In this document: in pieces, positions 11,227 to 14,840 of the stretch
Layout of the letters: every line of letters starts with the position of its first letter
Position numbering within the stretch: the first letter of the stretch is position 1
Source of the DNA: Hoyosella altamirensis
Lineage (GTDB): Bacteria; Actinomycetota; Actinomycetes; Mycobacteriales; Mycobacteriaceae
Direction: 5' to 3'
NCBI RefSeq assembly: GCF_014191505.1
Contig: NZ_JACHWS010000001.1
Coordinates: 496,001-560,000, forward strand
DNA: 64,000 bases
Notes under the pieces: model-generated
The model's input: the letters and a program-made list of their open reading frames with translations, nothing else
What the model was told of the DNA's origin: nothing
Database searches by the model: none
Made by a program: the position numbers and the translations under genes

Positions 11227-11520
11227 TCAGCCGTGCTTGGCTGCGAGATCGTTGATGGCGCGCGCCAAATTGAGATCGAGTTGGGTAATCCCGCCTTCGG
11301 AGTGCGTGCTGCACATGAAAGTGACTTTGCGCCATCTGATGTCAATGTCTGGATGATGATTTCTTTCCTCCGCCACTTCCGCAACCGCGCTGACCAACGC
11401 GATGGCGCCGGGAAAGGTAGGAAGGGCAATGGTCCTGCTGATAGCTGTGCCGGAGCGACTCCACCCGTCCAGAGATTCCAGGGCAGTGTCAACGTCCTTG
11501 TCTTCGAGTACTTGTGCCAT
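11227..11520 (-). CDS. phhB: Pterin-4a-carbinolamine dehydratase
   Basis: A 97-residue PCD/DCoH-family protein. The diagnostic active-site motif appears as AEERNHHPDIDIRWRKVTF, with the conserved H-H-P and R-W, followed by THSEGGITQLDLNLA. The enzyme dehydrates 4a-hydroxytetrahydropterin, recycling pterin cofactor. In mycobacteria the same gene (Rv1159A) is next to pimE, supporting a conserved block interrupted here by metPS and other genes. The start is ATG at 11520. Confidence 0.9.
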   Translation of the reverse strand: MAQVLEDKDVDTALESLDGWSRSGTAISRTIALPTFPGAIALVSAVAEVAEERNHHPDIDIRWRKVTFMCSTHSEGGITQLDLNLARAINDLAAKHG

Positions 11521-11686
11521 GGTGTGACATTCTCTCAGCCAACTGGGGGTGCGTGTTGGTGATGGACAATATCCGGCCGATCCATTCCTGCAGGGTTGCT
11601 AACTGTTGCGGGTCGAGTGGTCGTTAGTGGTCTTTAACGCGCTTGAGCGATCAAACTTGTCAGTGGTGTGCGGTACAACCGGACAC

Positions 11687-12274
11687 ATGAACTTAGCGTC
11701 GTGGGCACAGCGCAACGGGGTTGCGCGTGTGACCGCGTATCGCTGGTTTCGCTCTGGCTCGCTCCCGGTCCCGGCCCGCGGGGTCGGCGGCCTGATCCTG
11801 GTCGGCGATCCCACCACCAACACGCAATCGCATGGCCGGACAGCGGTGTATGCGGGGGTGTCGTCAGCGGATCAGAAGGCCGGCCTCGATATTCAGGTCG
11901 CACGAGTGACAGCGTGGGCCGCGAGTGAGCGGATCGGCGTCGGCAAGGTCGTCACTGAGGTCGGATCAGCGCTGAACGGGCACCGTCGAAAGTTCCTCGC
12001 CTTGCTGCGAGACCCGATTGTCACACGGATCGTGGTCGAACACGGTGACCGGTTCTGCCGGTTCGGATCGGAGTACGTCCAGGCCGCGCTCGCAGCGAAC
12101 GGCCGCGCGCTGGTCGTGGTCGATTCGTGCGAGGTGGACGACGACCGTGTGCGGGATATGACCGAAATTCTGGCGTCGATGTGTGCGCGGTTGTATGGCA
12201 CACGCGCTGCCGCTCACCGCGCCAAGCGAGCGGTAGCGGCGACTGCTGACGACATTTCCCGCCGGGTGGCGTGA
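11687..12274 (+). CDS. tnpA: IS607-family serine recombinase TnpA, catalytic Arg replaced by Gly
   Basis: A 195-residue protein: residues 1-40 form a MerR-like HTH (SWAQRNGVARVTAYRWFRSG), then a resolvase/invertase catalytic domain. The usual Y-A-R-V-S-S motif reads YAGVSS at 55-60; Ser59 (nucleophile) is kept but the Arg equivalent to R8 of gamma-delta resolvase is Gly57 (GGG, 11855-11857), one base from CGG. The second motif, EHGDRFCRFGSEY, keeps the Asp, Arg and distal Arg. Start ATG 11687. The missing Arg makes an active recombinase doubtful. Confidence 0.85.
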   Translation: MNLASWAQRNGVARVTAYRWFRSGSLPVPARGVGGLILVGDPTTNTQSHGRTAVYAGVSSADQKAGLDIQVARVTAWAASERIGVGKVVTEVGSALNGHRRKFLALLRDPIVTRIVVEHGDRFCRFGSEYVQAALAANGRALVVVDSCEVDDDRVRDMTEILASMCARLYGTRAAAHRAKRAVAATADDISRRVA

Positions 12275-13710
12275 TGGCGGAGAAGTTCGAGGTTCCTGGC
12301 GGGTGGGTGTTGCAGGCGTACCAGTACGCGCTCGACCCGACCGATGCGCAGGCCGTTGCGTTGGAGTCGCACGCGGGTGGGGCCAGGTTTGCGTGGAACA
12401 CGATGCTGCGAGCAGTGAAAGCGAACCTGTCCCAGCGCGAGGCGGAGAAGTCGTACGGGATCACCGACGCTGATCTGACCCCGAGCATGGTCTGGTCGTT
12501 CCAATCGCTGCGCAACGACTTCAACAAACGCAAACACCAGGTAGCGGTCCGCGAGGACGGCACACCGTGGTGGGCAGAGAACTCGAAAGAGGCGTACGCC
12601 AACGCATGCAAGAACCTCGCGGAGGCGTTGAAGAACTGGAGCGACTCACGCAAAGGCACCCGTAAAGGCCCGAGAGCTGGGTTCCCGTCCTTCAAGTCGA
12701 AGCGTTCGGCCAGGGCTTTCGCGTTCACCACCGGCACGATCCGGGTCGAACCGGACCGGCATCACGTAACACTGCCGAGGCTCGGCACGCTGCGGGTGCA
12801 CGAGTCGGCCCGTAAACTCGCCCGCCGCCTCGAACACCGCACAGCCCGGATCTTGAAAGCGACGGTTCGGTTCGAACGTGGCAGGTGGCTGGTGAGTTTC
12901 ACCTGTGTGGTTGAGCGTGCCGCCAGCCGTCCGGAGCACGTCAAACGCCTGGCACCGGTGGTCGGGGTCGATGTTGGTGTGAAAGACCTGATCGTCGCGG
13001 CCACCCCCGACGGGCGGGAGGTTCTACGTGTGCAGGCTCCGAAAGAGTTCACACACGCGTCCCGGAAACTGCGGGCGCTGCAACGTAAAGCAGCGCGCCA
13101 GCAAGGCCCGTGGGACGCGGTAACCGAAACCAGGCGGGAGCCGTCGAACGCCTGGCAACGCACACAGCAGGCGATCGCGGACCAGCATGTGCGGGTGGCG
13201 AACCTGCGCCGGGACCGCCTCCACAAACTGACCACGCTGCTGGCGCAGTCGTTCGACGTGATCGGCACCGAGACGCTCGCGGTGAAGAACATGATGGCCG
13301 CCGGTGGTGCCCGCAAGAAAGGCTTGAATCGTTCGATCGCTGACGCGGGTCTGGGTGAGTTCTCCCGCCAGCTCGACTACAAAACCACCTGGTACAGCTC
13401 GGCACTAGTCAAGGCGGACCGGTGGTATCCCAGCTCGAAGACGTGTTCTGGTTGCGGTTCAGTGAAAGCCAAACTGAGCTTGTCAGACCGCTTGCACGTC
13501 TGCGACAACGAAGACTGCGGGTTGAACATCACCGGTATCGACCGGGACCTCAACGCCGCTATCAACCTCGCGCGCTATGCGCGGGCGGAGCAGAGTGCCT
13601 GCTTCGATAATGGTGGAGCCGACCGTAAGACGACCGCTCCGGCGGCGCTGGTGGCTATGAAACCTGAATCCAGCGATGGAAGCGCCTCACCCAAAACTGA
13701 GGCTGCATAG
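12274..13710 (+). CDS. tnpB: TnpB RNA-guided nuclease (RuvC-like) of IS607 element
   Basis: A 478-residue TnpB. The three RuvC carboxylates are intact: GVDVGVKDL, IGTETLAVKNM, and GIDRDLNAAINLA. The zinc finger is CSGCG ... CDNEDC, complete but with four rather than two residues between the second Cys pair. The N-terminal HTH-like part starts YQYALDPTDAQ. TnpB uses an RNA from its own 3' region to cut DNA and retain the element. A GTG at 12271 overlaps the tnpA end; the ATG at 12274 is equally good. It should still be active by motif. Confidence 0.92.
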   Translation: MAEKFEVPGGWVLQAYQYALDPTDAQAVALESHAGGARFAWNTMLRAVKANLSQREAEKSYGITDADLTPSMVWSFQSLRNDFNKRKHQVAVREDGTPWWAENSKEAYANACKNLAEALKNWSDSRKGTRKGPRAGFPSFKSKRSARAFAFTTGTIRVEPDRHHVTLPRLGTLRVHESARKLARRLEHRTARILKATVRFERGRWLVSFTCVVERAASRPEHVKRLAPVVGVDVGVKDLIVAATPDGREVLRVQAPKEFTHASRKLRALQRKAARQQGPWDAVTETRREPSNAWQRTQQAIADQHVRVANLRRDRLHKLTTLLAQSFDVIGTETLAVKNMMAAGGARKKGLNRSIADAGLGEFSRQLDYKTTWYSSALVKADRWYPSSKTCSGCGSVKAKLSLSDRLHVCDNEDCGLNITGIDRDLNAAINLARYARAEQSACFDNGGADRKTTAPAALVAMKPESSDGSASPKTEAA

Positions 13711-13772
13711 CGATGATCACCAAAGATCACTCAAATGCAACGGAAGCTAGAGTCCGAGCTATGGAGAAAGCA

Positions 13773-14840
13773 ATGACATCGTCTCGGTGCATCCGGGCGA
13801 GACGCAGATCGAACATCCTGGCACTGTTTGTGCTGGTGCCTGCGCTCTCTGGGTGTACGGTCCTCGGCGGCGGCGAGGATGAGCAAGGGGCCGACACCGT
13901 CGTCCTGCTCACTCACGACTCCTTTTCCCTCCCTGCTGAGTTGCTCGAGCAGTTCCGGGAGGACTCGGGTATCCGGATTGATCACCGCGCGCAAGGGGAC
14001 GCCGGTGAACTTGTGACGAGTCTGGTGCTGACCCAGGACAATCCACTTGGGGACGTCGTGTTTGGCGTCGACAACACCTTCGCCTCACGGGCTGTGGACG
14101 CCGGTGTTTTCGCCGACTACGAACCGTCGATCAGCGTGCCCGACGACCTGCGCTACCCCAATTCTCGCGCACTCACGCCAATCGATTATGGCGACGTCTG
14201 CCTGAACATCGACACTCGCTACTTCGCTGAACGGGGTATCGCAGAGCCCAAGACCCTTGATGACCTGCTGTCTGCTGAATACGAGAATATGACTGTCGTG
14301 CAAAATCCCGCGACATCCTCGCCGGGACTTGCTTTCCTTCTCGCGACCATCGAGGAGTACGGCGAGGATGGGTGGCAGGATTACTGGACCAGCCTGCGCG
14401 ACAACGGCGTCAGTGTCGCGGACGGCTGGACGCAGGCTTACTACGTGGACTTCTCTGGCTCCGAAGGGGCAGGTCCCCGGCCGATTGTCGTTTCCTATGC
14501 CTCATCTCCGCCCGCAGAAGCCGGACCAGATGGGGCCGCACCAACGACCAGTGCACTGGCAGAAACGTGCTTCCGGCAGGTCGAATATGCGGGGGTGCTT
14601 GAGGGCGCGAGCAACCCGGACGGTGCAGAACAAGTGATCGAGTTCCTGCTTAGCGCTGACGTGCAGAGCGCGTTTCCAGAGAACATGTACGTCTTTCCGG
14701 CGGTGGAGGGCACCCCGTTGCCGGAAGCGTTCGACCTATACGCGCCGAAACCCGATGCGCCCATAACGATGGACCCAGCAAAGATCGGAGCCAACCGGGA
14801 CGCATGGATCACGCAGTGGCGTGACATTGTGCTGGGATGA
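13773..14840 (+). CDS. thiB: ABC importer substrate-binding lipoprotein, thiamine type (ThiB-like)
   Basis: A 355-residue lipoprotein. After an Arg-rich N-terminus the lipobox is ALSGC with Cys28. The mature protein matches thiamine-binding proteins: THDSFSLPAELLEQF, GDVVFGVDNTFASRA, NPATSSPGLAFLLATI, and GPRPIVVSYASSPPAE. It captures thiamine (or a phosphate ester) outside the cell for the ThiP/ThiQ pair downstream. ATG 13773 is chosen for GGAGAAAG six bases upstream; an earlier start at 13713 lies right at the IS607 border. No TPP riboswitch is visible upstream. Confidence 0.87.
   Translation: MTSSRCIRARRRSNILALFVLVPALSGCTVLGGGEDEQGADTVVLLTHDSFSLPAELLEQFREDSGIRIDHRAQGDAGELVTSLVLTQDNPLGDVVFGVDNTFASRAVDAGVFADYEPSISVPDDLRYPNSRALTPIDYGDVCLNIDTRYFAERGIAEPKTLDDLLSAEYENMTVVQNPATSSPGLAFLLATIEEYGEDGWQDYWTSLRDNGVSVADGWTQAYYVDFSGSEGAGPRPIVVSYASSPPAEAGPDGAAPTTSALAETCFRQVEYAGVLEGASNPDGAEQVIEFLLSADVQSAFPENMYVFPAVEGTPLPEAFDLYAPKPDAPITMDPAKIGANRDAWITQWRDIVLG

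What the first reader, a model, noticed from the sequence alone, without database searches (positions are those of the whole stretch)
11847..11866. IS607 recombinase lacks the catalytic arginine
TnpA reads YAGVSS where family members have YARVSS. The Arg matches R8 of gamma-delta resolvase, a residue used in catalysis. The GGG codon is one base from CGG. The nucleophile Ser59 and second-motif residues remain. The element may now be immobile, or the change may be tolerated, while TnpB remains motif-complete.
Basis: partly seen in the sequence, partly recalled or inferred. Interest (0 to 1): 0.6.

Follow-up and report, generated by a model that had tools for sequence, protein, structure and literature searches.

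The report
Transposon moved despite damaged transposase
A small bacterial jumping gene has lost an amino acid that its cutting enzyme normally needs, yet copies with the same loss sit at three different places in two related species, so it has kept moving, most likely by borrowing a relative's enzyme, while its RNA-guided nuclease gene stays intact.

Summary
TnpA (window 11687-12274) has Gly57 (GGG, 11855-11857) at the position of gamma-delta resolvase Arg8. The seven other aligned catalytic positions are intact. Arg57 is ancestral: 73 of 80 unique intact homologous ORFs have it, and the tree needs at least five losses.

"May now be immobile" does not describe this lineage. Two more Gly57 copies (98% identical) lie at different loci of a sister species (G050). 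All three sites have clean reciprocal empty sites carrying one GG. The copies are far younger (dS 0.02-0.03) than the host split (dS 0.31-0.38). So the Gly57 element inserted at least twice after the mutation.

Inside the Gly57 clade tnpA drifts at about the neutral rate (17 nonsynonymous : 5 synonymous), while tnpB is constrained (10:9). G050 also carries a divergent Arg57 copy with similar ends. Best reading: a non-autonomous IS607 element mobilised in trans by Arg57 relatives, with decaying tnpA and retained tnpB. No other IS607 TnpA was found in the window genome, so this copy is probably stuck now. A Gly57 TnpA with residual activity is not excluded; nothing was tested biochemically. It is an ordinary kind of element with an unusually clean natural history.

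The parts
11593..13743 (+). IS607-family element, 2151 bp, from left GG to right GG; exactly one GG remains in the empty sites
   Evidence: Sharp ends shared by copies at different loci; reciprocal empty sites
11593..11686 (+). Left end, GGGTTGCTAACTGTTGCGGGT...; the outer 21 bases are identical in the Arg57 copy of G050
11687..12274 (+). tnpA, IS607-family serine transposase, 195 aa, intact ORF
   Evidence: NF033518 185.6 bits, cut-off 110; PF00239; best solved relative IS1535 TnpA 6DGB
11855..11857 (+). Gly57 codon GGG at the gamma-delta Arg8 position
11861..11863 (+). Ser59 codon, nucleophile position (gamma-delta Ser10), intact
12044..12046 (+). Gly120, a second rare change of this copy (family R 69, K 10, G 1 of 80); consistent with decay
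12274..13710 (+). tnpB, RNA-guided nuclease, 478 aa, intact; D233, E333, D423 at the RuvC positions, CSGC and CDNEDC cysteines present
   Evidence: NF038280 457.5 bits, cut-off 350; alignment to TnpB 8bf8; positions
13711..13743 (+). Right end, ...CTCAAATGCAACGG
13744..13763 (+). Host flank that would supply the guide of the TnpB RNA (inferred from TnpB biology; no RNA family matched)
   Evidence: inference; one search found no Rfam match up to E 1 in 11400-14000

Best explanation
This is an IS607-family insertion sequence whose transposase lost the active-site Arg (R8 equivalent) by one C-to-G change in the common ancestor of three known copies. The element has become non-autonomous. Its ends and tnpB are kept, and it has since been inserted at new GG sites by an intact Arg57 TnpA supplied in trans by related copies. 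Freed of selection, tnpA is drifting at about the neutral rate. TnpB stays under purifying selection, probably because RNA-guided cutting of empty sites keeps the element in place. Shown: the residue loss, its single origin in this clade, three precisely bounded copies with empty sites, young element age, relaxed tnpA versus constrained tnpB, and similar ends in an Arg57 copy of G050. Inferred: that Gly57 abolishes catalysis, that a helper acted in trans, and why TnpB is kept.
For: Among 80 unique intact ORFs Gly57 occurs only in this clade and one unrelated copy. The Gly57 clade is one branch with 100/95 support, nested among Arg57 copies. Copies L115 and L116 in G050 are 98.2% and 98.1% identical to the window element and 99.6% to each other, with no flank similarity found. 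The window site is empty in G050 (flanks 91.8% over 3539 bp); the L115 and L116 sites are empty in the window genome (90.8% and 92.2%); each has one aGG. The outgroup G024 has no 2.15-kb insert at two of the three sites, judged from match spacing. Host genes at the window site have dS 0.31 and 0.38, the element 0.023-0.032. Inside the clade tnpA has N:S 17:5 (neutral expectation 2.68) and tnpB 10:9. dN per site is 17/426 versus 10/1081, Fisher p 0.0003, with equal dS (p 0.77). The Arg57 pair L119-L118 has tnpA N:S 12:25, p 0.001 against 17:5. The Arg57 copy L117 in G050 is 79.8% identical to L115 overall and 84-88% at the ends, with the first 21 bases identical. The other Arg57 losses are single tips of the tree. 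In Tn3 resolvase R8 contacts the scissile phosphate (PMC4499144, passages). In IS607, OrfA with Ser72 changed to Gly gave no transposition (PMC6188088, section 5).
Against: The direct N:S comparison of tnpA with tnpB inside the clade is not significant (Fisher p 0.11). The L115-L116 pair alone has tnpA omega 0.74 on 3 changes. Changes in the clade do not avoid conserved columns (p 0.24), but neither does the short Arg57 pair L083-L084 (p 0.23), so that test has little power. The Arg57 control L118 has itself lost its right end. One Arg57 pair in another genome, L042-L044, also reaches omega 0.96. No Gly57 enzyme has been assayed. Seven other catalytic positions remain intact. No helper was found in the window genome, so it must have been lost or have acted elsewhere, and no plasmid or phage record carrying this element was found. 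The spread of this clade could equally be read as a sign of activity.
Confidence: 0.62

Rival explanations
1. The Gly57 TnpA is still active, at full or reduced rate: the remaining Args of the active site or the special IS607 tetramer make up for the missing one, and the three copies moved by their own enzyme.
For: Three copies at three sites in two species all carry Gly57. Seven of eight aligned catalytic positions are intact. No other IS607 TnpA was found in the window genome to help.
Against: About neutral drift of tnpA in the clade against constrained tnpB. Further changes at well conserved columns (0.87-1.0 among the other sequences): R140G in the G050 copies, R69I, R120G, L154R, T163A in the window copy. 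Arg57 in 73 of 80 and 24 of 24 in the phylum sample. The other Arg57 losses are single tips.
Confidence: 0.23
2. Arg57 copies inserted first and the Gly57 form later spread between them by gene conversion or horizontal recombination.
For: The element family is mosaic: tnpA and tnpB distances between L118, L119 and the clade disagree. L115 and L116 lie in one genome at 99.6% identity.
Against: The clade is 98% identical over the whole 2151 bp, including both ends, not only near codon 57. It would have to happen in two species at three sites. All three copies share several other changes across tnpA.
Confidence: 0.1
3. The damaged TnpA is kept as a repressor that binds the ends but cannot cut.
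For: The tnpA ORF is open in all three copies. IS1535 TnpA forms filaments on the left end (PMC6188088, abstract).
Against: The N-terminal 50 residues take 4 of the 15 changed positions inside the clade, about the share expected by length. tnpA shows no purifying selection in the clade.
Confidence: 0.05

Closest known systems
IS1535 (Mycobacterium tuberculosis), IS607 family; TnpA catalytic domain solved as 6DGB
   Same: Same family; TnpA alignable over the catalytic domain (E 1.4e-40)
   Different: IS1535 TnpA has Arg at the R8 position (alignment); the window copy has Gly
IS607 (Helicobacter pylori)
   Same: GG ends and GG target without duplication, OrfA a serine recombinase (PMC6188088 section 5)
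   Different: Shown to move by its own OrfA; the window element probably cannot
Arg57 element of Hoyosella rhizosphaerae (L119; same place as L002, NZ_BMJH01000002.1)
   Same: 95.9% identical over 2151 bp, same ends
   Different: All eight aligned catalytic residues intact; sits in other flanks
Non-autonomous TnpB-only elements (IS1341 type, recalled)
   Same: Kept with TnpB but without a working transposase of its own, if the best explanation holds
   Different: Here the tnpA frame is still open and one catalytic residue is gone: an early stage
Motif-altered copies in Mycobacterium sp. SM1 (L021, L024, L029, YARGSW)
   Same: Three copies, 94.7-96.0% identical over about 2040 bp, at different places of one genome, all with the same altered motif; copies with the normal motif in the same genome
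   Different: Arg kept; the altered residues flank the nucleophile and their effect is unknown

Membership tests
IS607-family insertion sequence | TnpA is a serine recombinase with the catalytic domain after an N-terminal DNA-binding domain | tested here: met
   NF033518 over its cut-off over residues 5-177; resolvase domain from residue 53 on
IS607-family insertion sequence | Accessory tnpB of the IS607 type | tested here: met
   NF038280 457.5 bits against cut-off 350
IS607-family insertion sequence | GG at both termini, insertion at GG, no target duplication | tested here: met
   Three occupied/empty pairs, one GG each
Autonomous (self-moving) IS607 element | All catalytic residues of the serine recombinase present in its TnpA | tested here: not met
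   Seven of eight aligned positions intact, Arg57 lost; so it is filed under the family by descent, not as an autonomous element
Autonomous (self-moving) IS607 element | Its TnpA alone promotes transposition | not testable with these tools
   Needs an in vivo assay
Non-autonomous element mobilised in trans | Own transposase inactive | tested here: inconclusive
   Residue lost and tnpA relaxed, no assay
Non-autonomous element mobilised in trans | Ends kept and shared with an element that has an intact transposase in the same cell | tested here: inconclusive
   Such an element is present in G050 (L117, ends 84-88% identical; catalytic residues intact); none found in the window genome
Non-autonomous element mobilised in trans | New insertions after the transposase was damaged | tested here: met
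   At least two insertions after the Gly57 change

The most novel reading that the evidence does not exclude
The Gly57 TnpA is catalytically competent: IS607-type serine transposases can cut and rejoin DNA without the R8-equivalent Arg that contacts the scissile phosphate in resolvases, which would make the active-site chemistry of serine transposases differ from that of resolvases.
Probability: 0.2. Interest if true: 0.6.

Novelty: new member of a known kind. Interest (0 to 1): 0.36.

Why it matters
The case separates two things that are usually tied together: movement of an IS607 element and the state of its own transposase. Within one young clade, new insertions followed the loss of a catalytic residue, tnpA drifted and tnpB did not. 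If trans mobilisation is confirmed, it shows a first step towards elements that carry only TnpB, and supports the view that TnpB has its own reason to be kept. If instead the Gly57 enzyme works, the role of Arg8 in serine transposases must be rethought. Both are testable with natural alleles in E. coli.

Tried and rejected
R101G in the G050 copies first looked like a second catalytic loss (the R45 position, by hand alignment; my notebook entry still says so). The MAFFT alignment with gamma-delta resolvase puts R45 on residue 100, which is intact, and column 101 is variable (R 41, P 13, K 9 among 80). The idea was dropped.

Sequencing error was rejected: the same GGG occurs in an independent assembly.

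Excess of catalytic losses as a sign of selection for silencing: 23 of 80 unique intact ORFs lack at least one of eight catalytic residues, but 4 of 24 in the phylum sample. The larger set was drawn largely with this TnpA as query and includes genomes with many broken copies, so no claim is made.

Column-conservation test of the clade changes: little power, as told under evidence against.

Rfam search for the TnpB guide RNA: no match up to E 1 in 11400-14000. Phage records: no match at E 1e-5. Plasmid records: 22 with a match, none with one place covering 80% of the element, best 79.7% over 67%. Structure prediction and fold search were not run.

The original mutagenesis papers on Tn3 resolvase (NAR 2009) and on arginine as general acid (JBC 2013) are not held. 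That R8 mutants of resolvase are defective is therefore recalled, not read. Other paper searches were seen as listings with the start of each abstract; nothing on an R8-type change in an IS607 TnpA showed in them.

Rows dropped before the counts: in 162 loci searched (the F plasmid locus left out) 154 TnpA-like places were found; 51 were truncated, open-ended or without a start; the 103 others gave 89 unique DNA sequences, of which 9 with internal stops were dropped, leaving 80. The 80 include the window copy and its two G050 sisters.

Full report
Observation. TnpA lies at 11687-12274 on the + strand and is 195 aa long. Residues 55-60 are YAGVSS and the Gly57 codon GGG is 11855-11857. It belongs to the IS607 transposases (NF033518, 185.6 bits, cut-off 110), and its best solved relative is IS1535 TnpA, 6DGB, which has Arg at this place. 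I aligned 80 unique intact ORFs with gamma-delta resolvase from the F plasmid. Resolvase R8 aligns with residue 57. The other seven catalytic positions (S10, Q14, Q19, R45, D67, R68, R71) align with S59, Q63, Q70, R100, D121, R122 and R125, all intact in the window copy. Which resolvase residues count as catalytic is partly recalled.

How unusual. Column 57 is R in 73 of 80, G in 4, C in 2 and H in 1. In the phylum-wide sample 24 of 24 unique intact non-window ORFs have R (drawn, where 22 of 396 genomes had a match and 30 of 37 places were fetched as loci). On a maximum-likelihood tree column 57 needs at least five changes: one at the base of the clade of the window copy, and four at single tips (Micromonospora sicca L023, Micromonospora sp. 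MP36 L041, Streptosporangium sandarakinum L040 and an actinobacterial MAG L036). Much of the larger set was fetched with this TnpA as query, so it is not an unbiased sample. In it 23 of 80 intact ORFs lack at least one of eight catalytic residues, so damage of this sort in open frames is not rare.

The same Gly at other sites. The genus has three genomes in the held set. G050 holds two copies, L115 and L116, with the same GGG codon. They are 98.2% and 98.1% identical to the window element over its whole length and 99.6% identical to each other, and their flanks do not match. The related Arg57 elements are in Hoyosella rhizosphaerae (95.9%), G024 (94.2%, right end missing) and G050 itself (L117, 79.7%). 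The Gly57 clade is one branch with support 100/95, and the three copies also share other changes.

Empty sites. I joined the flanks of each copy across one GG and looked for the site in the other species. The window site is empty in G050 (91.8% identity over 3539 bp). The L115 and L116 sites are empty in the window genome (90.8% over 3479 bp and 92.2% over 3753 bp). Each empty site has a single aGG where the occupied site has the element between two GGs. The more distant G024 also has no 2.15-kb insert at the window and L115 sites, judged from the spacing of its matches, and neither has Hoyosella (G079) at the L115 site. At the L116 site both matched on one side only. The element is therefore 11593-13743, and the events are best read as insertions with the normal IS607 signature (GG target, no duplication; PMC6188088 section 5).

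Timing. Two host genes at the window site have dS 0.31 and 0.38 between the window species and G050. tnpB and tnpA of the window copy and L115 have dS 0.023 and 0.032. If rates are alike, the common ancestor of the Gly57 copies is about ten times younger than the species split. The Gly57 element must then have been exchanged between the lineages and inserted in each. At least two insertions followed the loss of Arg57.

Selection. Inside the Gly57 clade tnpA took 17 nonsynonymous and 5 synonymous changes (ratio 3.4; neutral expectation 2.68; p 0.81), and tnpB 10 and 9 (expectation 3.06; p 0.03 against neutrality). Per site, dN is 17/426 in tnpA and 10/1081 in tnpB (Fisher p 0.0003), with dS equal (5/159 and 9/353, p 0.77). 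The direct N:S contrast of the two genes is not significant (p 0.11). The Arg57 pair L119-L118 has tnpA N:S 12:25 (p 0.001 against 17:5), although L118 has lost its right end. Among TnpA pairs with dS under 0.08 and at least five changes, the two pairs inside the clade have omega 1.12 and 1.60, the Gly57 copies against the Hoyosella copy 0.86-1.05, and the other pairs 0.22-0.96, the highest of these being L042-L044. The third pair inside the clade, L115-L116, has three changes and omega 0.74. The changed positions include well conserved columns: R140 in the G050 copies; R69, R120, L154 and T163 in the window copy. A test of column conservation had little power.

TnpB. All three Gly57 copies have a full-length tnpB. 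The window protein has D233, E333 and D423 in line with the RuvC positions of TnpB 8bf8 (recalled to be ISDra2 TnpB), and its CSGC and CDNEDC cysteines. No known RNA family matches the element.

Who moved it. [quoted passage not shown] In IS607, OrfA with the active-site Ser changed to Gly gave no transposition (PMC6188088 section 5). No report of an R8-type mutant of an IS607 enzyme showed in the listings. G050 holds the Arg57 copy L117 with all eight catalytic residues (its TnpA is row L112). Its ends are 84-88% identical to those of L115, with the first 21 bases the same, against 79.8% for the whole element. That makes help in trans the simplest account of continued movement together with a drifting tnpA. 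In the window genome the searches found one IS607 TnpA, one TnpB and one such left end, so there the copy is probably immobile now.

A possible parallel. In Mycobacterium sp. SM1 three copies (L021, L024, L029), 94.7-96.0% identical over about 2040 bp at different places, share the altered motif YARGSW, beside copies with a normal motif in the same genome. Whether that motif is inactive is unknown.

Verdict. Its main inference, an immobile element, fails for the lineage but may hold for this copy today. It is a new member of a known kind: an IS607 element on the way to being non-autonomous. The unusual part is how cleanly mobility, transposase decay and TnpB retention can be told apart.

Noticed in passing
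11521-11592 and 13744-13760: The element sits in the short region between a pterin-4a-carbinolamine dehydratase gene (11227-11520, -) and a solute-binding protein gene of an ABC transporter (likely from 13761, +; families), 17 bases before the likely start codon of the latter. It may have displaced that operon's promoter, and the inferred TnpB guide would match its leader.
   Followed up: partly
L021, L024, L029 (Mycobacterium sp. SM1): Three IS607 copies at different places share the altered motif YARGSW around the nucleophile, beside normal copies.
   Followed up: partly
L118 (G024) around 6056: The G024 copy lacks the right terminus of the element, and its tnpB frame runs on into other DNA (830 codons; right-end comparison).
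   Followed up: no
L040 3001-3513 and L041 3001-3513: Cys replaces Arg57 in two separate lineages (Streptosporangium and Micromonospora). L040 against its Arg57 neighbour L035 has omega 0.15, so that loss may be recent.
   Followed up: partly
tnpA of the Gly57 clade: 6 of the 22 clade-internal tnpA changes are C to G, four of them Arg to Gly, as is the older Arg57 change itself; an odd spectrum.
   Followed up: no
L050, L053, L054, L063, L072 and others (unidentified bacterium isolate 18, CADDZO contigs): This genome holds many broken or frameshifted IS607 TnpA copies.
   Followed up: no
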